In this document: positions 5,060-59,845 of the stretch, piece by piece
How positions within the stretch are numbered: the first letter of the stretch is position 1
How the letters are laid out: every line of letters begins with the position of its first letter
Assembly (NCBI RefSeq): GCF_937425535.1
Contig: NZ_OW485601.1
Span: 1,452,501-1,516,500, forward strand
Length of the DNA: 64,000 nt
Source of the DNA: Rhodovastum atsumiense
GTDB lineage: Bacteria; Pseudomonadota; Alphaproteobacteria; Acetobacterales; Acetobacteraceae
Direction: 5' to 3'
Made by a program: the position numbers and the translations under genes
The notes under the pieces: model-generated
Database searches by the model: none
Seen by the model: the letters and a program-made list of their open reading frames with translations, nothing else
What the model was told of the DNA's origin: nothing

Positions 5060-5209
5060 GCGGGGCGTTGCCCCGCACCCTACCAGGAGGCTTCGCCTCC
5101 TGGACCTCCACCAAGGGCTACGCCCTTGGAACCCATGACTCTGTGCCGCGCAGCGAGAATGGGATCCAAGGGCCTTGTGGCCCTTGGTGGGTCAAGGGCA
5201 AAGCCCTTG
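5060..5209. repeat. Five-hairpin intergenic element, copy A
   Basis: Five perfect hairpins lie between the convergent nagA and gabD stops. They are GCGGGGC/GCCCCGC (5060-5076, GTT loop), CCAGGAGGC/GCCTCCTGG (5083-5103, TTC loop), CCAAGGGC/GCCCTTGG (5111-5129, TAC loop), CCAAGGGCC/GGCCCTTGG (5166-5187, TTGT loop) and CAAGGGC/GCCCTTG (5193-5209, AAA loop). Hairpins 1-3 read away from nagA, starting 11 nt past its stop. Hairpin 5 starts 8 nt past the gabD stop on the other strand. The 36-nt segment between hairpins 3 and 4 is shared almost exactly with copy C near 36.74 kb. Confidence 0.85.
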
Positions 5210-5216
5210 CCTTGGC

Positions 5217-6662
5217 TTAAGCTTCTGCCTGGGTAATGAACTTCGTGTTCAGATAGGCCTCGATCGCCTCGCTGCCGCCTTCCGAGCCATAGCCGGAATC
5301 CTTGATCCCGCCAAAGGGCACTTCCGGCAGGGCCAGACCGTGGTGATTGATCGACATCATCCCGCTTTCAACGGCTGCGGCGATGGCCGAAGCGGTCTTC
5401 ACCGAACGGGTGTACGCGTAGGAAGCCAACCCAAAGGGAAGACGGTTCGCCTCCGCCACGGCATCGTCGAAGCCGTGGAACGGCATCATCAGGGCAAGCG
5501 GGCCGAACGGCTCCTCGTTCATCACCCGCATCTCGCGCGTCACCCCGGTCAGCACCGTTGGCTCGAAGAAATTGCCTTTGTTGCCAATGCGCTTGCCGCC
5601 CGTGCGCAGTTCGGCGCCCTTCTGAACGGCGTCCTGCACGAAGCCTTCCATCGCCGTCACGCGGCGGGGGTTGGCCAACGGGCCCATCGTCGTGCCCGGC
5701 TGCAGGCCATCGCCCACCTTCACCGCCCTGGCAAAATCGACAAAGCGGCCGACGAAATCCTCGTACACGCTCTCCTGCACCAGGAAGCGTGTCGGCGAGA
5801 TGCAGACCTGTCCGGCGTTGCGGAACTTGTTGGCGGCGAGGATGCGGGCGGCAGCGGCGATGTCGGCATCCTCGAACACGATGACCGGCGCGTGCCCGCC
5901 CAGTTCCATCGTCACCCGCTTCATGTGCGCCCCGGCCAGGGCGGTGAGGTGTTTGCCCACGACGGTCGAGCCGGTAAAGGAAATCTTCTTCACCGTCGGA
6001 TGCGGGATCAGGTACTCGGAAATCTCGGCCGGCACGCCGAAGACCAGTTGCACCACCCCCGGCGGCAGCCCTGCGTCCTGGTAGACCCGGACAAGCTCCG
6101 CGCAGGAAGCCGGGGTTTCCTCGGGTCCCTTCAGGATCACCGCGCATCCGGCCGCCACCCCCGCCGAGATCTTGCGCACGGCCTGGTTGACCGGGAAGTT
6201 CCACGGGGTGAAGGCGGCGACCACGCCGACCGGCTCCTTGACGACGAGCTGGGTGACCCCTTCGGCGCGCGCCGGAATCACCCGTCCATAGGTGCGACGG
6301 GCCTCCTCGGCGAACCATTCGATGATGTCGCCGGCAAACAGCAGCTCGCCCTTTGCCTCCGCCAGCGGCTTGCCCTGCTCCAGGGTCATCAGCCGGGCGA
6401 TGCTGTCGGCCCGCTCGCGAATCAGGGTGGCCGCCTTGCGCATCACCTTGGCGCGGTCATGGGCCGACACTTTCCGCCAGACGGCGAAGCCGCGCTCCGC
6501 GGCCGCCAGGGCCTGGTCCAGGTCCTCCGTACCGGCATGGGCCAGCGTGCCCAGCGCCTCGCCGGTCGCAGGGTTGACCACCGTCAGGGTCTTGCCCGAC
6601 CGGGCTGGCGTCCAGGCGCCGTCAATGAACAACGGGACGGCAGGATAATCTGCGGACGACAT
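5217..6662 (-). CDS. gabD: NAD(P)-dependent succinate-semialdehyde dehydrogenase
   Basis: This aldehyde dehydrogenase of 481 residues most closely fits succinate-semialdehyde dehydrogenase, which oxidises the semialdehyde from GABA breakdown to succinate. Visible motifs are [16 protein letters not shown] (typical of GabD), [19 protein letters not shown] for cofactor binding, [18 protein letters not shown] with the general-base Glu, and [12 protein letters not shown] with the catalytic Cys. The start at 6662 is chosen because GGGGAG lies 9 nt upstream; an ATG at 6671 and an in-frame extension to 6710 are less well placed. It is not in an obvious gab operon: the upstream neighbour on the same strand is phoB. 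Substrate range within the family cannot be fixed from sequence alone. Confidence 0.88.
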
Positions 6663-6788
6663 CGATGGCATCTCCCCACGCATGAGCAAGCAACAGCCAT
6701 GATGCGTCATACCATGCCCGGCGGTCGAGCCGGCGGCGCAGATTATCCTGCAGGTTGGATGGTTCGGCGGGCCCGCGCCGGCGACGGA

Positions 6789-7505
6789 TCAGACAGGCTC
6801 CGTATCCAGCGCGTATCCCGCCGCGCGCACCGTGCGCACCACGTCCAGCTCCCCTTCGGCGTTCAGCGCCTTGCGCAGCCGGCGGATATGCACGTCCACC
6901 GTGCGCGGCTCGACATGGATGTCGGCGCCCCACACCGCGTCCAGCACCTCCTCGCGGGAGAACACCCGGCGCGGATGCCGCAGGAAGAATTCCAGCAGGC
7001 GGTACTCGGTCGGCCCCAGGTGCACCGCACGGCCACCGCGCTGCACACGGTGCGCCGCCTGGTCCATGGTGATGTCATGGAAGCTCAGCGTGCCCTTCGC
7101 CGGCACCGCACCGGCCCGGCGCAGCAGGGCGCGCATCCGCGCCAGCAGCGCATCCATGTTGAAGGGCTTGGTGATGTAGTCGTCCGCCCCGGTGTTCAGG
7201 CCGCGCACCGCATCCTGGTCCTCGGTGCGCGCGGTCACCATGATCACCGGCAGGTTGCGCGTTTCCGAGCGGCGACGGATCTGCCGGCACACCTCGATCC
7301 CCGACATCACCGGCAGCATCCAGTCCAGCAGCACCAGATCGGGCGGCGCCTCGGAAATGCGGGTCAGCGCCTCCTGTCCGTCGGCCGCCTCGTCCACCCG
7401 GAAACCCTGCTTTTCCAGGTTGTAGCGAAGCATCGTCGCCAACGCCGCTTCGTCCTCCACCACGAGCACCAATGGCCTGGCCAGCGACGAGATCAGCTCC
7501 GCCAT
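6789..7505 (-). CDS. phoB: Phosphate-regulon response regulator PhoB
   Basis: PhoB is the OmpR-type response regulator that activates the phosphate-starvation regulon. Residues 1-120 are the receiver domain, with the acidic pair in VVEDEAA, phospho-acceptor Asp61 in VLLDWMLPVMSG and Lys113 in ITKPF. The C-terminal winged helix carries GPTEYRLLEFFLRHP, FSREEVLDAVWG and RTVDVHIRRLRKAL. ATG 7505 is preferred over GTG 7511 because GGGAG lies 9 nt upstream. The gene starts 6 nt after the phoU stop and closes the pst operon. No phoR histidine kinase follows: the next gene is gabD, so the kinase must be encoded elsewhere. Confidence 0.95.
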   Translation of the reverse strand: MAELISSLARPLVLVVEDEAALATMLRYNLEKQGFRVDEAADGQEALTRISEAPPDLVLLDWMLPVMSGIEVCRQIRRRSETRNLPVIMVTARTEDQDAVRGLNTGADDYITKPFNMDALLARMRALLRRAGAVPAKGTLSFHDITMDQAAHRVQRGGRAVHLGPTEYRLLEFFLRHPRRVFSREEVLDAVWGADIHVEPRTVDVHIRRLRKALNAEGELDVVRTVRAAGYALDTEPV

Positions 7506-7511
7506 GTGCAC

Positions 7512-8234
7512 TTACTCCCGTGGGCTGCGGACCACGGCATAGGCCGAGCTGTCCCCCTTGGGCCGCACTTCCGGGATCGGCTCCCCCTTCACCGCATAGT
7601 ACACCATCTCGGCGATGTTGGTGGCGTGATCGCCGATCCGTTCGAGGTTCTTGGCGATGAACAGAAGATGCGCGCAGGGGGTGATGTTGCGCGGATCCTC
7701 CATCATGTAGGTGATCAGCTCGCGGAACAGCGCGTTGTAGATGGCGTCCACCGCCTCGTCGGAGCGCCACACCTCCATCGCGCGATCGGCGTCGTTCTCG
7801 CCCAGCGCGTCGATGATGGATTTCAGGTTCTGCTGCACCAGCTGCGACATGTGCGCGAGCCCGGTGAGCGGATAGGGCATGCTGAACTGGTCCAGCACGA
7901 TGCTCCGCTTGGCGACGTTCTTGGCATAGTCGCCAACACGCTCCAGCTCGCCACTGATCTTCAGCGCCGCGACGATGTGGCGGAGATCCTGCGCCATCGG
8001 CTGGCGCAGGGCCAGCAGGCGGATGACGAACTGCTCCACCTCGCGTTCCAGCGCATCGACCTTGGGATCGGCCTCGACCGCCTGGGCGGCGGCGTCGGAA
8101 TCGCGCTCCAGCACCGCGTCGCAGGCCAGCGCCACCTGGCGCTCCACCATGCCGCCCATATCCGTGATCTGCGTCCGCAGGCGAACCAGTTCCTGCTCGA
8201 AGCTTTTCACGATGTGCTCCGCCATGTCAGACAT
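7512..8234 (-). CDS. phoU: Phosphate signalling protein PhoU
   Basis: PhoU is a cytoplasmic helical protein that links PstSCAB transport state to PhoR/PhoB and keeps the regulon off when phosphate is plentiful. The 240-residue protein shows the two PhoU repeats, each with an acidic metal-binding signature: ISGELERVGDYAKNVAKRS in the first and AKNLERIGDHATNIAEMV in the second. The start at 8234 (MSDMAEHIVKSFEQEL) is preceded by AGGGGG; the open frame extends upstream through pstB in another frame, which is an artefact of GC-rich DNA. It lies between pstB (15-nt gap) and phoB (6-nt gap). Confidence 0.95.
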   Translation of the reverse strand: MSDMAEHIVKSFEQELVRLRTQITDMGGMVERQVALACDAVLERDSDAAAQAVEADPKVDALEREVEQFVIRLLALRQPMAQDLRHIVAALKISGELERVGDYAKNVAKRSIVLDQFSMPYPLTGLAHMSQLVQQNLKSIIDALGENDADRAMEVWRSDEAVDAIYNALFRELITYMMEDPRNITPCAHLLFIAKNLERIGDHATNIAEMVYYAVKGEPIPEVRPKGDSSAYAVVRSPRE

Positions 8235-8248
8235 GACGCCCCCTTTCT

Positions 8249-9079
8249 TCAACCGAAGCGACCGGTAATGTATTCCTGGGTCCGCCGTTGCCGCGGTGCC
8301 GTGAACATCTGCGTCGCGGTGCCCACCTCGATCAGTTCGCCGAGGTAGAAGAACGCGACCTGATCGGCGCAACGCGCCGCCTGCTGCATGTTGTGGGTGA
8401 CGATGGCGATGGTGAAGTCCTGCTTCAGCTCGTCGATCAGTTCCTCGATCTTCAGCGTGCTGATCGGGTCGAGCGCGCTGGTCGGCTCGTCGAACAGGAT
8501 CACTTCCGGCCGGGTGGCGATCGTCCGGGCGATGCACAGGCGCTGCTGCTGGCCGCCCGACAGCCCCATGGCGGAACTGTGCACGCGGTCCTTGACCTCG
8601 TCCCACAGCGCGGCGCGCGACAGCGCCCATTCCACCCGCTCGTCCAGGTCGGCCTTGTTCAGACGCTCGTGCAGCTTCACCCCGAAGGTGATGTTCTCGT
8701 AGATCGTCATCGGGAAGGGGGTAGGCTTCTGGAACACCATGCCGACGCGGCTGCGCAGCTGGTTCAGGTCGACGCCGGCATCAAGAATATTCTGCCCATC
8801 CAGCAGCACCTCACCGACTGCGCGTTGCCCAGGGTACAAATCGTACATCCGGTTGAGGACGCGCAGCAACGTCGATTTGCCGCACCCGGAGGGACCGATC
8901 ATGCCGGTCACCTGCCGCTCCGGCAGGTCGAGGTCGATGGCCTTCAGGGCACGGTTGCTGCCGTAGAAGAAGTCAAGGTTGCGGATGGCAATCCTTGGTT
9001 GATTGAGCACGACCTCGGCGCGCGCCGTCATCGTGCTAATCGCGGGGGGCTGCTGCGTCTCGTTCATGATGTTGCTCAT
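8249..9079 (-). CDS. pstB: Phosphate ABC transporter ATP-binding protein PstB
   Basis: PstB is the ATPase of the high-affinity phosphate importer. The 276-residue protein contains Walker [18 protein letters not shown], the Q-loop region [15 protein letters not shown] characteristic of PstB, the signature [15 protein letters not shown], Walker [14 protein letters not shown] and the switch His in [11 protein letters not shown]. The ATG at 9079 has GAGG upstream. The N-terminal 25 or so residues before the ABC domain are a short poorly conserved lead. It is fourth in the pst operon and presumably under the Pho box before pstS. Confidence 0.96.
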
Positions 9080-9098
9080 CAGCAGGGGCCTCGTTGCG

Positions 9099-9974
9099 TC
9101 AGGTGCGCGGGCGCAGGGCGAAGCGCGCGACGATGTTCAGGGCCAGCACGCCCAGGGTGATCAGCAAGGCGCCGGTCCAGGCCAGCGATACCCAGTCATC
9201 GAAGGCCGAGCCGGCATACTGGTAGATGGTCACCGGCAGGCTGGACATCGGTGCGGTCAGGCTCAGCGACCAGTTCAGGTTGCCCAATGAGGTGAACAGC
9301 AGCGGCGCGGTCTCTCCGGCGACCCGCGCCACCGCCAGCAGCACGCCGGTGGCGATGCCGTCCAGGGCGGCCCGGTAGCAGACCAGGATCACCACCCGCC
9401 ATTTCGGCGCCCCCAGGGCGAAGGCCGCTTCCCGCAGCGGGACGGGGATCAGCCGCAGCATGTCCTCGGTGGTGCGCACCACGATCGGGATCACGATCAC
9501 CGCCAGCGCCACGCAGCCGGCGATGCCGGAGAACCCGCCGAACGGCCCCACCATGATAGTGTAGACGAACAGGCCAACCAGGATCGACGGCGCCGAGAGC
9601 AGCACGTCGGAGACGAAGCGCACCGCGTTCCCAAGCGCGGAGTTGCGGGCGTATTCGGCGAGGTAGGTGCCGACCAGCAGGCCGATCGGCATGCCGATCA
9701 GGGTGCCGATCAGGGTCTGGATCAGGCTGCCGATGATCGCGTTCAGCAACCCGCCATTCGACCCGGGGGGGCGCGTGATGTCGGTGAACACGTGCAGATC
9801 CAGGCCGGCAAAGCCGCGCCACAGCAAGGTGGCCAGGATCGAGGCCAGGAAAGCCAGGCCGATGATGGTGGCGACGGTGCAGAGCAGCTTCACCACCCCG
9901 TTCGTCCGCCGCCGCCGGCGCGACAGCCGCGCGGCGACCGTGGGATTGCGGGTGGTCTTCAGGGCGATGCTCAT
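9099..9974 (-). CDS. pstA: Phosphate ABC transporter permease PstA
   Basis: PstA is one of the two inner-membrane channel subunits of the PstSCAB importer. The 291-residue protein has a basic N-terminus (RLSRRRRR) followed by about six hydrophobic segments. The cytoplasmic EAA loop that docks on PstB is visible as [19 protein letters not shown]. The motif [19 protein letters not shown] is typical of PstA. The start at 9974 follows GGGGGAT and lies 16 nt after the pstC stop. Confidence 0.95.
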
Positions 9975-9990
9975 CGATGGATCCCCCCGC

Positions 9991-10977
9991 TCACGCCGAA
10001 CGCGGCCGCAGCAGCGTACGCGAGATCGCGAGCACGATGAACGAGATCACGAACAGGATGAAGCCCAGTGCCAGCAGCGAGGACAGCTTCAGGCTGCCGG
10101 CCGGGCTTTCCGGGAATTCGAGCGCCACGATCGAGGCGATGGTGTTGCCGGGATCGAACAGCGAGGTCGCGATGCGGTTGGTGTTGCCGATCACGAAGGT
10201 CACCGCCATGGTCTCGCCCAGCGCCCGCCCGAGCCCGAGCATGATGCCGCCGACCACCGAGGCGCGGGTGTACGGCAGCACGATGCTGCGTATCACCTCC
10301 CAGGTGGTGCAGCCGACGCCGTAGGCGGATTCCTTGTAGACGGCCGGCACTGTCATGAACACGTCGCGCATGGTGGCGGCGATGAAGGGGATGACCATCA
10401 CCGCCAGCACCAGGGATGCCGTCAGGATGCCGGTGCCGAAGGGCGGCCCCTGGAACAGGATGCCGATCAGCGGCGTCTCGCCCAGGGTGTCGGAGAGGAA
10501 GGGCTGGACGTATTCCGACATGACCGGAACGATTACGAAGAAGCCCCACATGCCATAGATGATGGAGGGCACCGCGGCGAGCAGCTCGATGGCCGTGCCG
10601 ACCGGACGACGGAACCAGACCGGGGCGATCTCGGTGAGGTAGACGGCGATGCCGAACGCGAGCGGCACCGCGATCAGCAGGGCCAGGAAGGCCGTGACCA
10701 GGGTGCCGAAGATCGGCACGCCGGCGCCGAAGACCTGCTGCACCGGGTCCCATTCGGTATCGAATACGAAACCGATCCCGAAGGCGCGGAAGCTCGGCAG
10801 CCCGCCCATGAACAGCGAGACGATGATCGCCCCCAGCAGAACCAGCACGAACACGCCGGCGGCGATGGTAGCGGCGCCGAACACCTTGTCGGCGGCCGAG
10901 GAAGCCCCATGGCGGCGGGCAGGAGGAGCGGCAATGGTTGCGGCTTGGGACAAGACGAACGTTCCCTGGCTAGTCAT
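9991..10977 (-). CDS. pstC: Phosphate ABC transporter permease PstC
   Basis: PstC pairs with PstA as the membrane channel for phosphate. With the start at 10977 ([11 protein letters not shown]) it has 328 residues, a cytoplasmic N-terminus of about 30 residues, then about six membrane spans. The docking loop is [19 protein letters not shown] and the conserved [19 protein letters not shown] is present. A GTG at 11034 would add 19 residues but would place the start upstream of a strong hairpin (10992-11023), so 10977 is preferred even though no strong ribosome site is seen. Confidence 0.93.
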
Positions 10978-10991
10978 TCGGTCAGCCGAAA

Positions 10992-11023
10992 CCGGGCCGG
11001 GCACCCTGCGGCGCCCGGCCCGG
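10992..11023 (-). promoter_or_regulatory. Strong hairpin between pstS and pstC
   Basis: Perfect 11-nt arms CCGGGCCGGGC (10992-11002) and GCCCGGCCCGG (11013-11023) flank a 10-nt loop. It lies 17 nt after the pstS stop and 15 nt before the chosen pstC start. In binding-protein ABC operons, hairpins at this place often stop or stabilise the transcript so that the binding protein is made in excess. That role is inferred from position. Confidence 0.6.
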
Positions 11024-11039
11024 CGGAGGAGCACGTTAC

Positions 11040-12074: not shown

Positions 12075-12189
12075 GATCCCTCCTTGGGAGCTTCAGTCGC
12101 ACCCGCAGGGGCGGGCATGGGCTGGCGGGCAGCTCCCCACCCCCCGGTGTGTGCGTGCCGGCACCGTATGCAGCGTCGGCGACCGCCAG

Positions 12190-16137: not shown

Positions 16138-16590
16138 CTAGATGGCGAAGTTGATCGGTTCCGTGGTGGGCCGCCGCAACCCGGCGGCCGCGGCCCGGCG
16201 CAGCAGGTCATCGAGCGTCAACGCCGACAGCTTTTCCTGCATCGCCGTCTCCAGCTCGTTCCACAGCCCGTCGACCACGACCTCCTGCAGCCGCCCGACC
16301 GGCCCGTCCGTCGGCTCGGCCTCGTCATTGGCCATGGCGACGGTGATGATATCGGAGATGCGGATATCCCGGCGCGGCCGGCCGAGTCGGTAGCCACCGC
16401 GCGGTCCGCGCACGCTCTCGAGCAGCCCGGCACGGGAGAGCGACTGCAGCAGCGGCTCCATGCCGCGCCGCGCCAGTCCCAGCCGCTCGGCAATCTCGGC
16501 CGCGCTCACCGTGGCGGTCCGCCCGCCATGGAACGCGACATCCAATAGTACGGTCACCGCTACCATCCCGCGGTCACGCCGTATCAACAT
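16138..16590 (-). CDS. Rrf2-family transcriptional regulator beside cysK
   Basis: This is a 150-residue Rrf2-family winged-helix regulator. The DNA-binding region has [24 protein letters not shown] followed, as separate pieces, by [20 protein letters not shown], whose RGPRGGYRL wing is diagnostic. There are no cysteines, so it does not hold an Fe-S cluster as IscR and NsrR do. Cysteine-free Rrf2 proteins such as CymR regulate cysteine metabolism, and the divergent position to cysK fits that. A short palindrome (16642-16654) in the shared intergenic region is a candidate operator. The link to cysK is inferred from context. Confidence 0.88.
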
Positions 16591-20866: not shown

Positions 20867-21098
20867 GCGGGGCGCTGCCCCGCCCCCGCCAGGAGGCTTT
20901 GCCTCCTGGACCTCCACCAAGGGCCAAAGGCCCTTGGATCCCATGTTTGGTTCCTGGGAGGGGGGGGCATCCTCGCCGGTGACGGGTCCGTGCCGGTTCG
21001 CCCCCCTCCCAGGAACCAAACACCCGGGGTGCAGGGGTCTTCGACCCCTGCCGGAGTCCAGAGGCGGAGCCTCTGGCGGGGCCGGGGCAGCGCCCCGG
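20867..21098. repeat. Composite multi-hairpin intergenic element, copy B
   Basis: Seven inverted repeats fill the gap between the convergent SDR and livM genes. Reading from the SDR: GCGGGGC/GCCCCGC (20867-20883), CCAGGAGGC/GCCTCCTGG (20889-20909) and CCAAGGGCC/GGCCCTTGG (20917-20937). A long 22-bp inverted repeat (20944-21022) sits in the middle. Reading from livM on the minus strand: CCGGGGC/GCCCCGG (21082-21098), CCAGAGGC/GCCTCTGG (21058-21076) and GCAGGGGTC/GACCCCTGC (21031-21051). Both sides have the same three-module order, starting 5 nt and 2 nt after the respective stop codons. Confidence 0.85.
20944..21022. repeat. 22-bp perfect inverted repeat inside copy B
   Basis: Arms 20944-20965 and 21001-21022 are perfectly complementary over 22 nt (starting TGTTTGGTTCC and ending GGAACCAAACA) around a 35-nt loop. 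The loop holds a smaller ACGG/CCGT hairpin. It is much longer than any other stem in the window and is unlike the neighbouring modules in sequence. It resembles the terminal repeats of a tiny non-autonomous insertion, but no target-site duplication is clear. Confidence 0.7.
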
Positions 21099-36500: not shown

Positions 36501-36668
36501 CCGCTGGCGCTCGGCTTCGGCACCGGCGGGGAATTGCGCCAGCCACTCGGCATCGCCGTCATCGGCGGGCTGATCGTCAGCCAGGCCCTGACGCTCTATA
36601 CCACGCCAATCATCTCCCTGGCCCTGCAGCGGCGGCGGTCCAAGGCAGTGCCCGCACCAGCGGAATAG
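33564..36668 (+). CDS. mdtC: RND multidrug efflux pump subunit, MdtC type
   Basis: This 1034-residue RND protein follows mdtB by 16 nt and is its paralogue. It starts MSFSTPFILRPVATVLLAIG. The proton-relay segments are TGFVVDDAIVMIENIVRHME and LLMGIVKKNAIMMIDFALEQ. In MdtBC pumps the two subunits are unequal, one transporting protons and one binding drug; which is which here is not decidable by eye. The stop codon TAG shares its G with the first base of hairpin element C. Confidence 0.93.
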   Translation: MSFSTPFILRPVATVLLAIGILLAGAVAYRFLPVAALPSVDIPTVVVFASRPGADPETMATSIAAPLERRLGEIAGVTELTSTSAVGSTSIVVQFDLSRDIDGAAHDVQAAINAATPDLPSDLPTRPYFRKFNPAEMPVITLALTSDTLSPAQVYDAADSVLAQRLSQVEGVAAVQVNGAEKPAVRVRLNPAALAAAGLSAQDVTTAIRAANVNGPLGGFQGPDRAETIGLNNQLMKAADYRGLVLKSSNGATLRLSDVASVIDGVANTRLAAWFGRHPAILLNVTKTAGANVIETVDRVKAVLPLLQSWMPPDIHLTILSDRTQSIRASVDDVQLTLLMSVGLVLMVVALFMRRLVPTIAAMVTVPLSIAGTLAAMWLYGFSLNNFSLMALTVATGFVVDDAIVMIENIVRHMERGTPPLQAAIVGARQIGFTVVSISLSLVAVFIPVLFMGGILGRLFHEFATTLTLAIAISAVVSLTLTPMLCGQFMRPDQPGTAAAPRRASLWTRLDALLDRGFRRLQHGYADSLAWALRWRWLMLLATFATIGLTIWLYTAVPKGFLPTQDTGLLQGSTLAGPEISFAAMTERQRAVVEVLLADPAIEAVGSTIGVSSGWGSQNRGQLTIALKPYAQRGVTADQVIARLRPQLARVGAMQTFLWAAQDMRGGGRQGADNQFVLLGPDLAEVRQWSERLTARLRVTPGITDVSSDQDRAGPQANLVIDREAAARLGVSVNAIDAALDNAFAQRQVSIIYTARNQYRVVVEVDPRLQDDPTDLFHLFVPGRNGTQVPIGAVTRLERGSAPLAVRHQGQFPAATISYGTAPGTAEGSAAAAVQQAALDLRMPDTLRTDFAGNARWLAQSLSSQPYLIGAAFLAIYIVLGVLYESLTQPITIISTLPSAGLGALLAMLVTNTPLGIMGIIGILLLMGIVKKNAIMMIDFALEQERQHGLSPQQAIHAACLERFRPIMMTTLAALLSAVPLALGFGTGGELRQPLGIAVIGGLIVSQALTLYTTPIISLALQRRRSKAVPAPAE

Positions 36669-36841
36669 CGGGGCGCTGCCCCGCCCCCGCCAGGAGGCTT
36701 CGCCTCCTGGACCTCCACCAAGGGCAAAGCCCTTGGAACCCGATACTCTGTGCCGCGCAGCGCGAATGGGATCCAAGGGCCTTGTGGCCCGTCACGCGAA
36801 GGCGTGCCTGCGCACGACGTGGGTCAAGGGCGAAGCCCTTG
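36668..36841. repeat. Multi-hairpin intergenic element, copy C, with an inserted module
   Basis: Between the convergent mdtC and GH15 stops are GCGGGGC/GCCCCGC (36668-36684, GCT loop), CCAGGAGGC/GCCTCCTGG (36690-36710, TTC loop), CCAAGGGC/GCCCTTGG (36718-36736, AAA loop) and CAAGGGC/GCCCTTG (36825-36841, GAA loop). The fourth hairpin of copy A is broken here: CCAAGGGCCTTGTGGCCC is followed not by TTGG but by about 29 nt containing CACGC-GAAG-GCGTG. The first hairpin overlaps the mdtC stop codon; the last begins 3 nt past the GH15 stop on the minus strand. Confidence 0.85.
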
Positions 36842-53041: not shown

Positions 53042-53051
53042 TATCGTCGCC

Positions 53052-54216: not shown

Positions 54217-54888
54217 TCAGCCGCTGAAGCGCGAGAAGAGAACGTTGTTCTCCAGATCGATATGCTCCTTCAGGTCCTCGGTCAGCCGCCGCGCCCCGAC
54301 ATACAGGGCCCGCCAGGTCGGGCAGGCCTCGGCGGGCAGCCCGAAGCCATGCGTCAGCCCCTCCAGCCGGCGCAGGCTCTCTTCCGCCTCGCCGTGCTCG
54401 CGCAGCATCACCCCGATCGGCGAGCCGATCATCGGATGTCCCCCTGCGCGCATGAGCGGGAACAGCACCTGTTCCTCCTTCTGCATGTGCGCCTCCAGCT
54501 CATCGGCAAGGCGCTGCAGCAGCGCCGCGATGCCGCGCGGCGCCAGCGGATGCGCGCCATGCACCGCCTCCACCCGCTTCGCCAGCCGCAGCAGCTCCGG
54601 CAGGTCCCGCCGGTGGCCGGCATGGAAACGGGTCTCGATCAGCGCGATCAGGGCCTCGGTGTCCAGCGCCCCCTGTCCCGGCGATCCACGGGCGATCATG
54701 GTGTCGAGCTCCGCTTCCAGCCCGGCGACATCCAGCCCCTTCGCCGCCGCCGCCTCGCCGAGCGGAACCTGGCCACCACAGCAGAAATCGAGCCTGTGAC
54801 GCCGGAACACCGCGGTCGCCCCGGGCAGGTGGGAGGCGATCTCGGCAAGGGTGCGATGGGCGAAGCCGACAGTTTCGGGGGCGGACAT
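54217..54888 (-). CDS. ric: Iron-sulfur cluster repair di-iron protein (RIC/YtfE/ScdA)
   Basis: RIC proteins restore Fe-S clusters damaged by nitric oxide or peroxide. The 223-residue protein starts MSAPETVGFAHRTLAEIASH after AGGAGAAA. It has the ScdA N-terminal domain with RHRLDFCCGGQVPLGEAAA, then a hemerythrin-like four-helix bundle with metal-binding His/Glu in TRFHAGHRRDLPELLRLA, AHMQKEEQVLFPLMRAGG, MLREHGEAEESLRRLEG and DLKEHIDLENNVLFSRF. It is divergent from an NsrR-like gene, with three operator-like repeats between them. Confidence 0.94.
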   Translation of the reverse strand: MSAPETVGFAHRTLAEIASHLPGATAVFRRHRLDFCCGGQVPLGEAAAAKGLDVAGLEAELDTMIARGSPGQGALDTEALIALIETRFHAGHRRDLPELLRLAKRVEAVHGAHPLAPRGIAALLQRLADELEAHMQKEEQVLFPLMRAGGHPMIGSPIGVMLREHGEAEESLRRLEGLTHGFGLPAEACPTWRALYVGARRLTEDLKEHIDLENNVLFSRFSG

Positions 54889-54930
54889 GCGATTTCTCCT
54901 GGACCCGCGGCGAGCGAGGGGGATGATCCG

Positions 54931-55002
54931 GGTATTGGCGATAAAAACTGGTATCGCCAATACCAATTACCCTGGCGCCAGTTTGTGGTATCGTCAATAC
55001 CA
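54931..55002. promoter_or_regulatory. Operator array between ric and nsrR
   Basis: Two perfect copies of TGGTAT-N5-ATACCA lie at 54949-54965 (spacer CGCCA) and 54986-55002 (spacer CGTCA), 37 bp apart. A third, half-degenerate copy GGTATTGGCGATA (54931-54943) is the exact reverse complement of TATCGCCAATACC at 54952-54964. The last site ends 18 nt before the nsrR ATG and the first begins 42 nt from the ric start. The array can control both genes; NsrR itself is the obvious candidate binder. Confidence 0.8.
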
Positions 55003-55020
55003 ATTTCCGGACCCACCATC

Positions 55021-55473
55021 ATGCGCCTGCTTGCCTCCACCGATTTCGCGCTCCGCATTCTCATGCGGCTCTCCGCCGAACCCGACGGCCAGCATCTCAG
55101 CGTGGAGGCGCTCGCCCGTGAACTCGGCGGATTGTCACGCAACCATCTGCACAAGGTGGTGCAGGAACTCGCCGCCCTGGGCGTGGTCCGCACGGTGCGT
55201 GGCGCCCGCGGCGGGGTCGCGCTGGCCCGGCCGGCCAGCGAGATCCGGCTCGGCGAGTTGCTGCGCAGCCTGGAAACCGATCAGTCGCTGGTGGAATGCT
55301 TCCGCAGCGACGGCGGCGCCTGCGTGCTGACCCCGTGCTGCCGGCTGAAGGGCTTCCTCGGCGGCGCCTGGAGCGCCTTCCTGCGCGAGCTCGATCGCCA
55401 CACCCTGGCCGACTGCCTCGTGCGCGAGGGCGGCGTGCCGGTCCTGCCGCTCGTCCACGCGGCGGACGCCTGA
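55021..55473 (+). CDS. nsrR: NsrR-like Rrf2-family nitric oxide-sensing regulator
   Basis: This 150-residue regulator starts MRLLASTDFALRILMRLSAE. The winged helix has LSRNHLHKVVQELAALGVVR and the wing TVRGARGGVALARPASEIRL. The C-terminal half has LVECFRSDGGACVLTPCCRL, with cysteines arranged as in NsrR, which binds an NO-sensitive Fe-S cluster. Divergent position to ric, a known NsrR target in other bacteria, supports the name. IscR is unlikely since the tail CRLKGFLGGAWSAFLRELD is of NsrR type. Confidence 0.9.
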   Translation: MRLLASTDFALRILMRLSAEPDGQHLSVEALARELGGLSRNHLHKVVQELAALGVVRTVRGARGGVALARPASEIRLGELLRSLETDQSLVECFRSDGGACVLTPCCRLKGFLGGAWSAFLRELDRHTLADCLVREGGVPVLPLVHAADA

Positions 55474-55505
55474 GACCGGCCGTCCGCCGCCCGTCCCGCT
55501 CAGGC
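55461..55505. terminator. Overlapping hairpins between convergent nsrR and tam
   Basis: GGCGGAC/GTCCGCC (55461-55467 with 55482-55488) and GCCTGAG/CTCAGGC (55468-55474 with 55499-55505) are two mutually exclusive stems. They cover the nsrR stop codon and the tam stop codon. A bidirectional terminator is the simplest reading. No T-tract is seen. Confidence 0.5.
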
Positions 55506-56273
55506 CGCCGTCGCCACCAGGAACAACCGCCGGAACGGCAGCAAAGTGGTGCCGTCCGGGCGGCGCGGGTAATGCGGCCGCAACGCCGCGCGGTAGGCCG
55601 CCAGGAAACCCTCGCGCAGTTCCGCCGGCAACGGATCGAGGAACGGCCGCAGGCTGGTGCCCATCGCCCACTGCACCACCGCGTCCTCGCCCTGCAGCGC
55701 GTGCATGTACGTGGTTTCCCAAAGATCCAGGGCAGCGCAGCACGGCCGCAGCAGATCCCAGTAGTCGGATGGGGCCAGGATCGCCGGGGCCGACCCGACC
55801 CCGGCCAGCAGCGCCGCCCAGGGGCCGTTCGCCGCCACCTCGTGCTGCAGCGCGCGCAGCGGCGCGGCGTGCATCAGCGGCATCTGCACCGCCAGCATCC
55901 CGCCCGACGCCAGTGTCGCCAGCAGGCGCGGGAACAGCGCCGCATGCCCATCCAGCCAGTGCAGGGCGGCGTTGGAATAGATCAGGTCCGGTGGCACCGC
56001 CGGCTCCCAGGCCGCGATATCGGCCTGCACGAAGGCGCAATCGGGCGCCGCCGCCCGCGCCCGCGCCAGCATCGGCCCCGAGCCGTCCACGCCGGTGATG
56101 TCGGCCGTGGGAAAGCGCTGCCGCAGGATCGCGCTGACATTGCCGGCGCCGCAGCCCAGATCGACCACCCGCGCCGGCGCCGCCAGGGGCACCCGCGCCA
56201 GCAGGTCGAGCGCCGGGCGCAACCTTTCGTCGCCATACCGAAGATAGATTGCCGGATCCCACTCCGCCGCCAT
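55500..56273 (-). CDS. tam: Trans-aconitate 2-methyltransferase
   Basis: Tam methylates trans-aconitate, a by-product that inhibits aconitase, using SAM. The 257-residue protein starts MAAEWDPAIYLRYGDERLRP after AAGGAGAGG. The SAM site is VVDLGCGAGNVSAILRQRF, followed by ITGVDGSGPMLARARAAAPD and the family motif DLIYSNAALHWLDGHAALFP. RPHYPRRPDGTTLLPFRRLF is typical of the Tam C-terminus. It is 15 nt beyond the membrane-protein gene and probably co-transcribed. Confidence 0.9.
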   Translation of the reverse strand: MAAEWDPAIYLRYGDERLRPALDLLARVPLAAPARVVDLGCGAGNVSAILRQRFPTADITGVDGSGPMLARARAAAPDCAFVQADIAAWEPAVPPDLIYSNAALHWLDGHAALFPRLLATLASGGMLAVQMPLMHAAPLRALQHEVAANGPWAALLAGVGSAPAILAPSDYWDLLRPCCAALDLWETTYMHALQGEDAVVQWAMGTSLRPFLDPLPAELREGFLAAYRAALRPHYPRRPDGTTLLPFRRLFLVATAA

Positions 56274-56288
56274 GGGTGCCTCTCCTTC

Positions 56289-57086
56289 TCAGCCGGGCCG
56301 GTCGGCCGGCTCTCCGCCGATCATGGCAACCATTCCCGCCGCCGGACCAGGGGCCGCGTCGCCGGCGCGAACCGCGATCCGGCCTGAAACCCGGTCGCGC
56401 CAGCGCCGCCATGCCACCGGCAGCAGCGACAGCGCCGCGAGCCCGAGCAACGGCCCCAGGACCGACGGCGACCAGATCAGCGACAGGTCCGGCCGCCCGC
56501 CCGCCTCCAGCACGCTGCCCAGCCCGGCGCCGATGCCGGCGAACACGAAGGTGGCGGGGGTGACGCCCAGCAGCGTCGCCGCGGCGAAGGTGCCGAGCCG
56601 CACGCCGAGCAGGGGCGCGGCGAGGTTGCCCAGCCAGAACGGCACCGCCGGCATCAGGCGCATGGCCAGCAGGTAGGAGAAGGCGTCGCGCCGCAGTTCC
56701 GGTCCGATCCGCGCCAGCAACGGCAGCGCGCGCGCCGCCAGCCCTGGCGCCGGCGAGCCGCGGATGATCAGGAACAACAGGCAGGCGCCGGCCGTGGCCC
56801 CGAGCACGGCGAGCCCGCCGCCCGCCACGGTGCCGAACAGCAGCCCCCCGACCACGGTGAACAACGCCCCCAGCGGCACCGAGACGCCGACCGCCGCGGC
56901 ATAGCCGGCCACGTAGGCCGCCGCCGCCGCGACCGGCGCGGCCTCGACGAAGTGCCGCAGCGCCGCCTGGTGCGCGGCCAGCGTCGCCCAGGACAGCGGC
57001 ACGCCCACGGCGGCGGCCCCCAGCAGCAGGGCCAGGAGCAGCAAGGGCCAGAGTCGATGCAGGTGGACGCGGCGCAACCGGGGCAT
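56289..57086 (-). CDS. TVP38/TMEM64-family (SNARE-associated/DedA-like) membrane protein
   Basis: This 265-residue inner-membrane protein has about five to six hydrophobic segments. The start at 57086 (MPRLRRVHLHRLWPLLLLAL) gives a basic N-terminus before the first span. The VTT/SNARE-associated core is seen in VPLGALFTVVGGLLFGTVAG, SYLLAMRLMPAVPFWLGNLA and LLGVTPATFVFAGIGAGLG. The family is linked to lipid scrambling or transport, but no specific role can be assigned. The upstream frame to 57263 overlaps the rpmH promoter and is not used. Confidence 0.85.
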   Translation of the reverse strand: MPRLRRVHLHRLWPLLLLALLLGAAAVGVPLSWATLAAHQAALRHFVEAAPVAAAAAYVAGYAAAVGVSVPLGALFTVVGGLLFGTVAGGGLAVLGATAGACLLFLIIRGSPAPGLAARALPLLARIGPELRRDAFSYLLAMRLMPAVPFWLGNLAAPLLGVRLGTFAAATLLGVTPATFVFAGIGAGLGSVLEAGGRPDLSLIWSPSVLGPLLGLAALSLLPVAWRRWRDRVSGRIAVRAGDAAPGPAAGMVAMIGGEPADRPG

Positions 57087-57166
57087 GGCGCCGCATGGTG
57101 CGCCGCACCGGCGCGCGCTGCGATGCCACCACGATGACAGACGTCCTCCTCCGCAACCGCCGAAGG

Positions 57167-57196
57167 TTGACGCACCCACCAACCCACTCCTATAAG
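57167..57196 (+). promoter_or_regulatory. Sigma-70-type promoter of the rpmH operon
   Basis: TTGACG (57167-57172) and TATAAG (57191-57196) are separated by 18 nt, close to the vegetative consensus. The start of transcription would be near 57203, leaving a leader of about 80 nt before rpmH. It also lies 81 nt upstream of the divergent membrane-protein start. This is the clearest housekeeping promoter in the window. Confidence 0.65.
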
Positions 57197-57282
57197 CCGC
57201 GGCCTGCACGGGACCCGGGCAACGGGCCCCGCGATCCCTCGTTCCGCCATCCGGCGGGCCCAAGCGTTATCGGAGAGTTGTC

Positions 57283-57417
57283 GTGAAGCGCACGTATCAA
57301 CCGTCGAAGCTTGTTCGCAAGCGCCGCCACGGCTTCCGGGCCCGCATGGCGACCGTCGGTGGCCGCAAGGTCCTGGCCAACCGCCGGGCCAAGGGCCGCA
57401 AGCGCCTGTCGGCCTGA
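57283..57417 (+). CDS. rpmH: 50S ribosomal protein L34
   Basis: This 44-residue gene encodes ribosomal protein L34. It starts with GTG at 57283, preceded by GGAGA, and reads [20 protein letters not shown], then [20 protein letters not shown] and RLSA. The sequence matches L34 along its whole length. It opens the conserved rpmH-rnpA-yidD-yidC cluster usually found near the replication origin in many bacteria, though no dnaA or oriC is visible here. Confidence 0.97.
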
Positions 57418-57438
57418 CCGGCAGCCGGGGTTCGGGCC

Positions 57439-57795
57439 ATGGCGCCGGCGCCGCAGCGCCTCAAGCGCCGTGCGGAATTCCTGCGCGTGAGTGCGCGCGG
57501 CCGCCGTGCCGCCGTGCATGGGCTGGTGTTGCAGGCCCTGGCCCGTCCCGAGGACGGGCCGGCGCGCCTGGGCTTCACCGTGACCAAGAAGGTCGGCAAC
57601 GCCGTCGTGCGCAACCGCACGCGACGGCGCCTGAAGGAAGCCGCCCGGCTGCTGCTGCGCGAGCACCCTGTCAGCGGCGTTGACCTGGTGCTGATCGGCC
57701 GTGACTCCACGCGCGGCCGCCGCTTCGACGCGCTGGTCGATGACCTGCGCCGCGCGCTCGCCAAGGCCGGGGTCACCGGGGCGACAGCGCCATGA
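57439..57795 (+). CDS. rnpA: Ribonuclease P protein component
   Basis: RnpA is the protein subunit that helps the RNase P RNA mature tRNA 5' ends. The 118-residue basic protein has KRRAEFLRVSARGRRAAVHG near the N-terminus, LGFTVTKKVGNAVVRNRTRR and the RNA-binding RRLKEAARLLLREHPVSGVD. It starts 21 nt after rpmH and overlaps yidD by 4 nt. Confidence 0.95.
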   Translation: MAPAPQRLKRRAEFLRVSARGRRAAVHGLVLQALARPEDGPARLGFTVTKKVGNAVVRNRTRRRLKEAARLLLREHPVSGVDLVLIGRDSTRGRRFDALVDDLRRALAKAGVTGATAP

Positions 57796-58046
57796 GCGCC
57801 ACTGCCCGCGTGCTTTCGGCCGGCGTCGTGCTCTACCAGTGGACGCTGCGCCCCTTCATCGGCGCGCATTGCCGCTATGAACCCTCCTGCAGCCACTACG
57901 CCCTGGAAGCCCTGGCCCGCCATGGCGCCGCACGCGGCAGCCTGATGGCGGCCCGGCGCGTACTGCGCTGCAATCCCTGGACCCCGGGTGGCTTCGATCC
58001 CGTGCCCCCGCCGCGCCAACCAGACGAACGCCGGAAGGCCCCCTGA
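57792..58046 (+). CDS. yidD: Membrane protein insertion efficiency factor YidD
   Basis: YidD is a small membrane-associated protein that aids YidC-dependent insertion. The 84-residue protein has LYQWTLRPFIGAHCRYEPSC followed by SHYALEALARHGAARGSLMA and RRVLRCNPWTPGGFDPVPP, including the three conserved Cys. The stop overlaps the yidC start by one base (TGATG). Confidence 0.94.
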   Translation: MSATARVLSAGVVLYQWTLRPFIGAHCRYEPSCSHYALEALARHGAARGSLMAARRVLRCNPWTPGGFDPVPPPRQPDERRKAP

Positions 58047-59770
58047 TGGACCAGAAACGCCTTATCCTCGCGATCGCGGCCTCGGTCGCGATCCTTATGG
58101 TGTTCCAGTTCCTGACACCGCCACCGCCCAAGCCGGTGCCGAAATCGGCACAGGTGACCACGTCCCAGCCGGCCCCGCCCGCCGGCGCGCCCGCGGGGGT
58201 GGGCATCCAGGCGACGGCCCCGGCAGTGCCCAGGGAAGTGCCGCGCCTGCGCATCAACGGCGACCGCGTGGCCGGCAGCATCAGCCTGCTCGGCGCGCGC
58301 ATCGACGACATCGTGCTGCGCGACTACCGCCAGACCATCGACAAGAACAGCCCGCTGGTGCGCCTGCTGGAGCCCCGCTCCGAGCCCCAGCCCTACTACC
58401 TGCAGTTCGGCTGGACCGCCGCGGCCGGCACCGCCGTGAAGCTGCCCGGCAACGACACCGTCTGGCAGGGCGCGGGCGAAGTGGCGCCGGGCAAGGCCGC
58501 CACCCTGACCTGGGACAACGGCGAGGGCCAGACCTTCGAGATCAAGGTCTCGCTGGACGAGAACTACATGTTCTCGGTGCAGCAGACCGTGCGCAACGCC
58601 GGCCCCGCTTCGGTCACGCTGTACCCCTGGTCGCGCATCCGCCGCGACTACACGCCGCACACCGAAGGCTACTACATCCTGCACGAGGGCCTGCTCGGCG
58701 TGCTGAACGGCACGCTGAAGGAACAGACCTACTCCACCGTCAAGAGCGACGGTGACAAGCGCGGCGGCCTGTCCTTCGACTCGACCGGCACCGGCGGCTG
58801 GGCCGGCATCACCGACAAATACTGGCTGACCGCCCTGGTGCCCGACCAGTCACTGCCCGGCACCACCAGCTTCCGCCATATCGCCGAAGGCACCAGCGAC
58901 CGCTACCAGGTGGACTTCCTGGCCAGCAATCCCCTGATCATCGCACCGGGGGCCGACGCCTCCCTCACCTCACGCGCCTTCGTGGGGGCGAAGGAAGTGC
59001 ACGCGCTCGCCGCCTACGAACGCCAGGGCGTGCCGCTGTTCTCCTACGCCGTCGATTTCGGCTGGTTCTGGTTCCTCACCAAGCCGATCTTCTACGCGAT
59101 CGACTGGCTGAACTGGCTGTTCGGCAATTTCGGCGTGGCGATCATCGTCTTCACCACGATCATCAAGGGCATCTTCTTCCCGCTGGCGAACAAGTCCTAC
59201 CGGTCGATGAGCAAGATGAAGCTTCTTGCTCCGAAGATGCAGGAACTGCGCGAGCAGTACAAGGAAGACCCGCCCAAGCTTCAGAACGAGATGATGAAGC
59301 TGTACAAGGCGGAGAAGGTGAATCCGGCCAGCGGCTGCCTGCCGATCCTGGTACAGATCCCGGTGTTCTTCGCCCTGTATAAGGTGATCTTCACCACGAT
59401 CGAAATGCGGCACGCGCCGTTCTTCGGCTGGATCCACGACCTCTCGGCCGTCGACCCGACCAACGTCTTCAACCTGTTCGGGCTGCTTCCCTTCGATCCC
59501 GCCCATTCCATCTCCCTGCTGCACCTGGGCGTCTGGCCGCTGCTGATGGGCGTGACGATGTACTTCCAGCAGAAGCTGAACCCGCCGCCGCCCGACCCGG
59601 TGCAGGCCAAGATCTTCCAGTGGATGCCGGTGATCTTCACCTTCATGCTGGCCAACTTCCCGGCCGGTCTGGTGATCTACTGGACCTGGAACAACCTGCT
59701 CACCATCGGGCAACAGTGGCTGATCATGCGTCAGACCACCCTCGACAAACCCCGGCTGGCACGTACCTAA
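58046..59770 (+). CDS. yidC: Membrane protein insertase YidC
   Basis: YidC inserts and folds inner-membrane proteins, alone or with SecYEG. The 574-residue protein starts MDQKRLILAIAASVAILMVF with the first span, then a large periplasmic beta domain (about 60-340) containing DKYWLTALVPDQ. The Oxa1 core follows: LFGNFGVAIIVFTTIIKGIF, KMKLLAPKMQELREQYKEDP, NPASGCLPILVQIPVFFALY and FPAGLVIYWTWNNLLTIGQQ. The conserved Arg-type hydrophilic groove residue falls in the IIKGIFFPLANKSYRSM region as Lys. Hairpin element D starts 5 nt after its stop. Confidence 0.95.
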   Translation: MDQKRLILAIAASVAILMVFQFLTPPPPKPVPKSAQVTTSQPAPPAGAPAGVGIQATAPAVPREVPRLRINGDRVAGSISLLGARIDDIVLRDYRQTIDKNSPLVRLLEPRSEPQPYYLQFGWTAAAGTAVKLPGNDTVWQGAGEVAPGKAATLTWDNGEGQTFEIKVSLDENYMFSVQQTVRNAGPASVTLYPWSRIRRDYTPHTEGYYILHEGLLGVLNGTLKEQTYSTVKSDGDKRGGLSFDSTGTGGWAGITDKYWLTALVPDQSLPGTTSFRHIAEGTSDRYQVDFLASNPLIIAPGADASLTSRAFVGAKEVHALAAYERQGVPLFSYAVDFGWFWFLTKPIFYAIDWLNWLFGNFGVAIIVFTTIIKGIFFPLANKSYRSMSKMKLLAPKMQELREQYKEDPPKLQNEMMKLYKAEKVNPASGCLPILVQIPVFFALYKVIFTTIEMRHAPFFGWIHDLSAVDPTNVFNLFGLLPFDPAHSISLLHLGVWPLLMGVTMYFQQKLNPPPPDPVQAKIFQWMPVIFTFMLANFPAGLVIYWTWNNLLTIGQQWLIMRQTTLDKPRLART

Positions 59771-59774
59771 GCAC

Positions 59775-59845
59775 CCGGGGCGCTGCCCCGGCCCCGGCAG
59801 GAGGCTTTGCCTCCTGCACCTCCACCAAGGGCCATTGGCCCTTGG
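59775..59845 (+). repeat. Three-hairpin intergenic element, copy D, between yidC and engB
   Basis: CCGGGGC/GCCCCGG (59775-59791, GCT loop), GCAGGAGGC/GCCTCCTGC (59797-59817, TTT loop) and CCAAGGGCC/GGCCCTTGG (59825-59845, ATT loop) follow in the standard order. The second stem differs from copies A-C by a compensating C:G to G:C change at its base. This is the only copy between co-directional genes; it ends 30 nt before the engB start. Translating it in frame with engB gives a false N-terminal extension. Confidence 0.85.

What the first reader, a model, noticed from the sequence alone, without database searches (positions are those of the whole stretch)
5060..59845. A family of ordered multi-hairpin elements that start at stop codons, with compensating changes in the stems
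Seen directly: at 2462-2480, 5060-5209, 20867-21098 (two units facing each other), 36668-36841 and 59775-59845 there are perfect hairpins with 3-4-nt loops in a fixed order. Module 1 is GCGGGGC or CCGGGGC; module 2 is CCAGGAGGC, GCAGGAGGC or CCAGAGGC; module 3 is CCAAGGGC(C), GCAGGGGTC or CCAGGGGC. Each variant stem has the matching change on its other arm. Linkers (CCCCCGCC-like between 1 and 2, ACCTCCACC-like between 2 and 3) and a GGATCCC tail recur. In each case the first module lies 0-11 nt after a stop codon and is oriented away from that gene. Covariation argues for selected RNA or cruciform structure rather than simple repeats. Without T-tracts these are not classical intrinsic terminators. 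Possible roles are Rho-blocking or processing sites, 3'-end stabilisers, or a mobile palindromic family that targets 3' ends. I cannot tell whether this family has already been described.
Basis: partly seen in the sequence, partly recalled or inferred. Interest (0 to 1): 0.75.

Follow-up and report, generated by a model that had tools for sequence, protein, structure and literature searches.

The report
Multi-hairpin repeats between gene ends
A bacterium of the acetic-acid-bacterium family carries a few hundred copies of an ordered, mirror-symmetric set of DNA/RNA hairpins packed right against the ends of its genes, most often where two genes run towards each other; it looks like a new family of a known kind of repeat and may mark where messages stop.

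Summary
The hairpins are real and far from chance. The full unit is ~150 nt: H1-H2-H3, a spacer, then H4-H5-CCTT. H4-H5 is an inverted relative of H2-H3, so the whole is an imperfect inverted repeat. A 1.66-Mb chromosome sample holds 87 units (40 full), so roughly 340 in all; 0 in 0.37 Mb of plasmids. Of 83 placed units, 44 lie between convergent genes (15% of intergenic DNA), 2 between divergent ones. At convergent sites 32 of 44 have both ends within 30 nt of both stop codons. Stems covary strongly (sample: 2,319 Watson-Crick pairs, 1 G-T, 1 A-C, 6 other), without the G-U excess published for RNA terminators. A covariance model finds the family in 195 of 299 Acetobacteraceae genomes, but in the class sample in own plus 3 of 190. 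Orthologous empty sites (stops 0 and 13 nt apart) show precise, lineage-specific gain. No GTAG/CGTC tag, target duplication or RAYT link was found. Best reading: a new REP/BIME-like family gained at 3' ends, probably acting as a two-way transcript boundary. Spread is well supported; boundary function is inferred.

The parts
5060..5076 (+). H1 of full unit 1 (GCGGGGC stem), 10 nt after the amidohydrolase stop
5083..5103 (+). H2 of full unit 1 (CCAGGAGGC stem)
5111..5129 (+). H3 of full unit 1 (CCAAGGGC stem)
5130..5165 (+). spacer AACCCAT ... TGCCGCGCAGCG ... ATGGGAT; parts of its two ends can pair
5166..5187 (+). H4 of full unit 1 (4-nt loop)
5193..5213 (+). H5 of full unit 1 plus CCTT tail; 3 nt before the stop of the opposing aldehyde dehydrogenase gene (5217)
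20867..20937 (+). A half (H1-H2-H3) after the SDR gene (stop ends 20862)
20944..21022 (.). long central inverted repeat (TGTTTGGTTCCTGGGAGGGGGG and complement) joining the two halves; a closely similar centre occurs in L097
21031..21098 (-). second, inverted A half (H3-H2-H1 read on +), 1 nt from the stop of the opposing permease gene (21100)
36668..36736 (+). H1-H2-H3 of full unit 3; H1 overlaps the AcrB-family stop by 1 nt
36773..36824 (+). H4 of unit 3, interrupted by a 30-nt palindromic insert (about 36790-36819, read by eye)
36825..36841 (+). H5 of unit 3, 2 nt from the stop of the opposing GH15 gene (36844)
59775..59851 (+). A-only unit (H1-H2-H3-ATCCC) between yidC and the next gene
2457..2488 (+). 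single B-end module GGGAT, CCAGGGGC hairpin, CCCTTCCG, up to the stop of the opposing HU-like gene
   Evidence: weak HMM match only (E 0.35)
2427..2451 (.). 11-bp perfect hairpin beside the module above; not of the family consensus

Best explanation
This is a family of dispersed non-coding palindromic repeats (REP/BIME-like or MITE-like) of Acetobacteraceae. The unit is an imperfect inverted repeat. Each arm is built of 7-9-bp hairpins followed by C-rich linkers (ACCC, ACCTCC, AACCCAT read from the gene into the unit), and the H5 end carries a CCTT tail. Shown: high copy number, mirror architecture, tight abutment to stop codons, covarying stems, presence in most sampled genomes of the family, lineage-specific gain at sites empty in relatives. 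Inferred: new copies land at, or survive only at, gene 3' ends, and there serve as a two-way boundary. RNA made from either side folds into a run of very stable hairpins that shields the 3' end from exonucleases and helps stop polymerase. The first hairpin would lie under a ribosome at the stop codon; the later ones would lie beyond it. How copies move is unknown.
For: 87 units in 1.664 Mb of sampled chromosome: 44 convergent, 37 tandem, 2 divergent, 4 overlapping called genes; convergent share p=1.4e-15 and divergent share p=2.2e-12 against the bp share of each gap type. Both ends within 30 nt of both stops in 32 of 44 convergent units, at least one end in 44 of 44; 35 of 37 tandem units within 30 nt of the upstream stop (uniform mean 18.9, max 28 of 5000 simulations). 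Pairing: 2,319 WC, 1 GT, 1 AC, 6 other in 288 stems of the 87 units; in 12 hand-picked clean copies 99.8% of 480 cells, 22 double changes, 0 one-sided. Folding z = -6.6 and -6.9 on the two strands of one unit. Empty sites: amidohydrolase/ALDH stops 13 nt and 0 nt apart in two congeners, 167 nt with a unit here; holA/parB gap 0-36 nt without unit in 8 relatives, 181 nt here; no three-hairpin unit after yidC in 49 of 49 relatives read. At parE/HU one congener has a full unit (other neighbour), one a B half, and one a long hairpin with TGGCCTTTTT instead, as if interchangeable with a terminator. Family: 195 of 299 genomes against own plus three of 190 in the class sample.
Against: No transcript data were examined. 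A sense terminator using the CCTT tail predicts H1-first orientation in tandem gaps; full units there are 5 H1-first to 15 H5-first in the sample and 15 to 13 among the 28 further ones; B-only units 1 to 6. Of 205 convergent gaps of 0 nt or more, 164 have no unit, and orthologous sites often lack one, so no locus seems to need it. T-run signals are more frequent in convergent gaps with units (12 of 41) than without (9 of 164), but such gaps also hold more hairpins. Mobility lacks an identified transposase, a target duplication and any plasmid copy in the stretches searched.
Confidence: 0.57

Rival explanations
1. Purely selfish palindromic repeats. They insert wherever they can and persist only in the few places where a 150-bp insert does no harm, the slots just after stop codons; no host function.
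For: Precise lineage-specific gain and loss; nested short palindromes inside units; no conserved occupancy; location next to stops is also reported for GTAG and CGTC REPs.
Against: Divergent gaps hold 34% of intergenic DNA but 2 of 83 units; no copies in 0.37 Mb of plasmids where about 19 would be expected at chromosomal density; stems stay almost perfectly paired while unpaired columns vary more (mean deviation 6.4% paired, 16.6% unpaired).
Confidence: 0.27
2. The paired stem changes come from a DNA-level process (template switching or cruciform correction that copies one arm onto the other) rather than from selection on RNA. This concerns how stems evolve and can be true beside the best explanation.
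For: Hardly any intermediates: 1 GT, 3 AC and 4 other beside 2,985 WC pairs in 76 full copies by best stem (which trims mismatched stem ends); no GT excess over AC in the alignment-based count (8 against 13, with 29 other), whereas B. cereus terminators show 68 GU to 8 AC; H3 loops occur in both senses (TTC/TTT and GAA/AAA).
Against: Transcription from both sides would also remove the GU preference, because GU on one strand is AC on the other; by my reading of the table, most changes that cannot pass through GU sit at the first two pairs of a stem, where selection is also weaker in B. cereus. Mismatches were too few to test by strand.
Confidence: 0.3
3. Intrinsic terminators pure and simple: H5 plus a U-rich tail stops polymerase.
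For: Of 99 H5 ends 83 continue with CCTT, 73 have >=4 T of 8 and 36 >=5 of 8; random unit-free intergenic positions 8% and 2.4%. Replacement by a hairpin with TTTTT at parE/HU in one congener.
Against: The tail starts with CC, has no counterpart at the H1 end, and is often on the wrong side for the sense transcript in tandem gaps; the gene-proximal hairpin is so close to the stop that a ribosome should hinder it (passages of PMC4824070).
Confidence: 0.2
4. Rho-loading modules: hairpins hold apart C-rich, G-poor linkers that act as rut-like sites for RNA read from either gene.
For: In the unit at 5060 the unpaired bases of the first half are 12 C and 2 G of 30 read rightward, 7 C and 0 G of 20 read leftward; similar linkers recur across genera while stems change.
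Against: A-only units in tandem gaps show no sense-strand preference (5 to 5); C-rich on one half is forced by the mirror symmetry.
Confidence: 0.12
5. DNA-level chromosome elements: cruciform or gyrase/nucleoid-protein sites absorbing supercoiling between convergent genes.
For: Convergent enrichment; none in the plasmid stretches searched; near-absence of G-T pairs.
Confidence: 0.1

Closest known systems
REP / BIME repeats, GTAG- and CGTC-tagged superfamilies (PMC3733652; section 15 and passages read)
   Same: High-copy short palindromes, intergenic, mostly between convergent or unidirectional genes, within about 20 bp of both 3' ends at convergent sites, sometimes combined into dimers
   Different: Units are ordered sets of up to five hairpins in mirror arrangement; no GTAG or CGTC tag seen at the two ends (outer tag CCTT at H5); no RAYT link; that paper states CGTC repeats are missing in Acetobacteraceae
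TIR repeat families of TIRYT transposases (PMC3733652, passages of sections 16 and 17)
   Same: Dispersed repeats, some self-complementary or doubly palindromic
   Different: Tied there to tyrosine transposases; here Y1 transposases are in only 36 of 299 family genomes; sequences were not compared
REPs within 15 nt of stop codons that lower translation (Liang et al. 2015, as cited in PMC12306157; passages)
   Same: Same spacing from the stop codon
   Different: Different architecture; translation effect not tested
Bidirectional intrinsic terminators of convergent genes (PMC5381666, passages; PMC4824070, passages)
   Same: GC-rich hairpins between convergent stops; one end has a partly U-rich tail
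   Different: Several hairpins in series, tail begins CCTT and sits at one end, repeated family with empty sites, no GU excess among mismatches
I-shaped or tandem terminators without U trail (classes recalled; one search is a listing only)
   Same: Hairpins without a full U-tract, in series
   Different: Those are structural classes, not a sequence family with conserved order and linkers
MITEs
   Same: Short inverted-repeat, non-coding, dispersed, empty sites in relatives
   Different: No target-site duplication found; an autonomous partner was not searched for

Membership tests
GTAG/CGTC-tagged REP | GTAG or CGTC tetranucleotide next to the hairpin | tested here: not met
   Base composition next to H1 and after H5 fits neither tag (71 copies; 99 and 112 ends); inner junctions were not tested for tags. 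A separate GTAG-type REP pattern occurs in the genome
GTAG REP | association with a RAYT (Y1) transposase | tested here: not met
   Y1_Tnp in 36 of 299 family genomes, units in 195 of 299 (many are drafts); the single own Y1 locus L133 (3.3 kb) has no perfect hairpin of >=7 bp
REP (broad sense) | high-copy intergenic palindromes, convergent/unidirectional gaps, near 3' ends | tested here: met
REP (broad sense) | single 20-40 bp palindromes or dimers | tested here: not met
   full units are about 150 nt with five ordered hairpins; 45 of 87 units are half units with two or three hairpins
Intrinsic terminator | GC-rich hairpin directly followed by a U-tract | tested here: inconclusive
   CCTT plus T-rich tail at the H5 end only; 36 of 99 with >=5 T of 8
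Intrinsic terminator | oriented so that the tail follows the hairpin in the sense transcript | tested here: not met
   no such bias in tandem gaps: full units 20 H1-first, 28 H5-first over both sets without duplicates
Intrinsic terminator | transcripts end there | not testable with these tools
   no RNA data; RNA-seq of the strain is public under PRJNA818516
MITE | empty sites in relatives | tested here: met
MITE | target-site duplication | tested here: not met
   71 copies (of 98 listed, after pattern match and removal of duplicates), k = 3-9, no excess over shuffles
MITE | autonomous partner with the same ends | not tested
   only the spacing of neighbouring units was listed
Known Rfam family | match to a curated model | tested here: not met
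   at E<=1 the window gives one match, mir-598 below its gathering score and outside the units

The most novel reading that the evidence does not exclude
An unrecognised family of palindromic repeats is gained precisely between stop codons without a known transposase, and its stems are kept perfect by a DNA-level copying process that changes both arms at once. RNA-like covariation would then arise without selection on RNA, and the repeats would be a continuing source of ready-made two-way gene boundaries.
Probability: 0.2. Interest if true: 0.75.

Novelty: new variant of a known kind. Interest (0 to 1): 0.5.

Why it matters
If right, it explains what separates many convergent genes in a large, often GC-rich bacterial family and gives a natural experiment (filled and empty sites in relatives) for how transcript ends are gained and lost. 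It is also a warning: strong covariation in palindromic repeats need not prove a functional RNA, because double changes here come almost without intermediates.

Tried and rejected
Rfam: nothing in the units. Plasmid collection, blastn of one unit: no match. A RAYT as the mover: not supported. Target duplications: none seen. Shine-Dalgarno look of H2 (AGGAGG): dropped, because H2 is CCAGGGC or CCAGGGGC in other copies and relatives. Sense-strand rut requirement: weakened by A-only orientation. The aminotransferase/rne junction (30 loci) was uninformative: rne was found as convergent neighbour only here and in L337. The four 'divergent' copies (L108, L112, L191, L203) have no tRNA gene in their loci; missed small genes were not excluded. 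Literature: (open-access PMC only; one search looked for the organism) listed no paper that I recognised as describing this family; PMC4686929, listed with Acetobacteraceae and REP, mentions REPs only in a general sentence (passages). That is not proof of absence.
Full report
WHERE IT IS. G000 has nine contigs, among them 6,482,810 (C1), 220,129 (C2) and 10,690 (C9) bases. PMC9938234 (passages) gives Rhodovastum atsumiense G2-11 a 6.48-Mb chromosome and eight plasmids from 10,690 to 220,129 bp. The window is therefore from that strain (inference from matching lengths).

OBSERVATION. The named hairpins are present. Perfect hairpins with stems of 8 bp or more number 24 in the window, against 4-12 in five Markov-2 simulations. 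Flanking genes by Pfam: amidohydrolase, aldehyde dehydrogenase, SDR, branched-chain permease, AcrB, GH15, YidC, gyrase-B family (one of the nine proteins had no match; parE, HU, holA, parB, engB and rne are my names for neighbours, from recall). Four of the five sites lie between convergent genes; the yidC site is tandem.

ANATOMY. Aligned copies give H1-ACCCNACC-H2-ACCTCCA-H3-RAACCCAT or similar-spacer (often TGCCGCGCAGCG)-ATGGGRT-H4-YGGGTC-H5-CCTT. blastn of one unit against the genome returns 40 same-strand matches at 86-100% and 26 opposite-strand matches at 71-84%, mostly residues 30-146, because H4-H5 is an inverted relative of H2-H3. In the 87 sampled units: full 40, H1-H2-H3 alone (A) 25, H4-H5 alone (B) 20, partial 2; some join an A half to an inverted A half around a long central stem (window 20867-21098; L097). 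Relatives show the same plan with other stems and similar linkers.

COPY NUMBER AND PLACE. An HMM without structure (seeded with 9 clean copies that I picked, then one round over half the sample) run over the window plus 80 evenly spaced 20-kb stretches (1.664 Mb) found 87 units, about 340 per chromosome; the first half alone, with a second-round HMM, had given 50 in 864 kb. The covariance model found matches at all 150 candidates scored, all on C1 (capped at 150). Plasmid stretches (370,690 bp, 46 convergent gaps) gave none. Genes were called with my own codon-usage caller, and some sampled bases read N, so single borders may be wrong. Placement: 44 convergent, 37 tandem, 2 divergent, 4 overlapping a called gene. 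Against the bp share of each gap type (units removed) the convergent excess has p=1.4e-15 and the divergent deficit p=2.2e-12; tandem is as expected (p=0.27). At least one end lies within 30 nt of a stop in 44 of 44 convergent units, both ends in 32. In tandem gaps 35 of 37 lie within 30 nt of the upstream stop; uniform placement gives 18.9 (max 28 of 5000), or 26.6 (max 33) if 40 nt before the start are forbidden. In 60 further loci (even ranks 4-132, five already sampled skipped) 58 full copies were placed: 22 convergent, 33 tandem, 2 divergent, 1 overlapping; 10 of these 58 also fall in the later half of the 1.664-Mb sample. In 34 copies from relatives: 7 convergent, 17 tandem, 2 divergent, 4 overlapping, 4 cut off (one, L223, is from outside the family).

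STEMS. On 12 clean copies picked by me from 18 full ones, 99.8% of 480 cells pair, 22 cells are double changes, none one-sided, one unpaired; shuffles average 94.7% and 6.3. On 76 full copies an alignment-based count gave 2,770 unchanged, 159 double changes, 8 GT, 13 AC, 29 other and 61 gapped cells, several of the mismatches being misalignments of shorter H2 stems; a best-stem count gave 2,985 WC, 1 GT, 3 AC, 4 other, one stem missing, but it cuts mismatched stem ends off. 58 of the 76 copies came through the covariance model and lean towards pairing; the 87 HMM-found units, free of that bias, gave 2,319 WC, 1 GT, 1 AC, 6 other in 288 stems, and 34 relatives (model-found) 993 WC, 3 GT, 4 AC, 2 other in 125 stems with 65 left-arm sequences (only stems scoring 6 or more counted). 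Random segments under the same rule had 144 mismatches (19 GT, 25 AC) beside 2,496 WC. In B. cereus terminators 68 of 76 AU-GC switches with a known intermediate went through GU (PMC5381666). The lack of a GU excess here fits selection on both strands or a DNA-level process and does not by itself prove a functional RNA. Double-change cells count copies, not events.

EVOLUTION. The model matches 195 of 299 Acetobacteraceae genomes, 70 of 102 genera, but only own plus three of 190 in a class sample (strict filters in both). One of six congeners, G005, has no match. Orthologous sites: (a) amidohydrolase/ALDH: TGA and CTA are 13 nt apart in one congener and adjacent in another, 167 nt apart with a full unit here, C-termini of like length; in two further congeners the amidohydrolase has no ALDH beside it or was not informative. 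(b) holA/parB: convergent in 17 of 30 loci read, own included; a unit here (gap 181) and a half unit in L307 (gap 96); eight others have gaps of 0-36 nt and no hairpin, seven have longer gaps without a unit in the stretch read. (c) yidC: none of 49 readable relatives (54 of 80 loci tried, 5 without a stop found) has the three-hairpin unit; L014 has one H1-like hairpin, and L014, L015 and L092 carry a unit after the next gene instead. (d) parE: one module here; among congeners a full unit with another neighbour (L275), a B half before HU (L277), a degenerate one (L276), a long hairpin plus TGGCCTTTTT read by eye (L288), and none (L278); outside the genus a unit in L280 and none in the other three family members read. 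(e) GH15: units in two congeners (L267, L268), none in two (L269, L270), a tail remnant in one (L271). So units come and go lineage by lineage, and at (a) and (b) they sit exactly between stop codons.

TAIL AND ORIENTATION. After H5 the sequence is CCTT (T in 89% at positions 3 and 4 of 99 ends), then often N-C-Y-T; 83 of 99 ends start CCTT and 36 have at least 5 T in 8 nt, random intergenic positions 2.4%. But full units in tandem gaps are H1-first in 5 and H5-first in 15, 15 and 13 in the 28 further ones, so the tail is often not downstream of the sense transcript.

MECHANISM. Shown: abutment to stops, mirror plan, pairing, gain at empty sites. Inferred: a two-way boundary. In E. coli the tR2 terminator is nearly inactive a few bp after a stop and full beyond 27 nt (PMC4824070 passages); here the gene-proximal hairpin would be masked by a ribosome but the later ones would not. 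REPs within 15 nt of a stop can lower translation (passages of PMC12306157, citing Liang 2015), a further possible effect. Exonuclease protection by such hairpins is from general knowledge.

KNOWN OR NEW. REPs of the GTAG and CGTC classes show the same convergent, stop-adjacent placement (PMC3733652 section 15), and that paper says CGTC repeats are missing in Acetobacteraceae and describes further TIR repeat families. RepRanger counted 1,369 REPs in Lichenicola cladoniae (section 11), an Acetobacteraceae member, so REP-richness in the family is in print, without this architecture in the parts I read. I file the finding as REP-like in behaviour, not a member of the GTAG or CGTC classes.

Noticed in passing
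window 36790-36819; L099 11353-11448; L102 7672-7762; L108 8554-8644; L126 11428-11553: A 30-nt palindrome starting CGTC and ending GACG (with variants) is inserted inside H3 or H4 of several units; of 14 pattern hits in the sample (both senses) 9 lie in or near units. Possibly a second, nested repeat family.
   Followed up: partly
L098 about 16340-16436; L102 about 13300; L132 about 11950: A GTAG-type REP pattern (TAGGGCGGA...TCCGCC) occurs in the sampled genome (15 and 17 hits in the two senses, 3 inside units).
   Followed up: partly
L133 (C1:3804268-3804561): The only Y1 transposase match (24.7 bits, 215-aa frame) in the genome; a candidate RAYT for the GTAG-type REP.
   Followed up: partly
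window 20944-21022; L097; L013; L019; L143: Long central inverted repeats, differing between species, sit between the two arms of some units.
   Followed up: no
L014 just after yidC: A lone H1-like hairpin followed by ACCCCGG, which may be a one-module precursor or remnant of a unit.
   Followed up: no
genome contigs C2-C9 (stretches L204-L222): No unit in 370,690 bp of plasmid sequence although about 19 would be expected at chromosomal density; plasmids may have a different history.
   Followed up: partly
window 2427-2451: An 11-bp perfect hairpin (TCTGCTTTCGC...) next to the single B module between the parE-like and HU-like genes.
   Followed up: no
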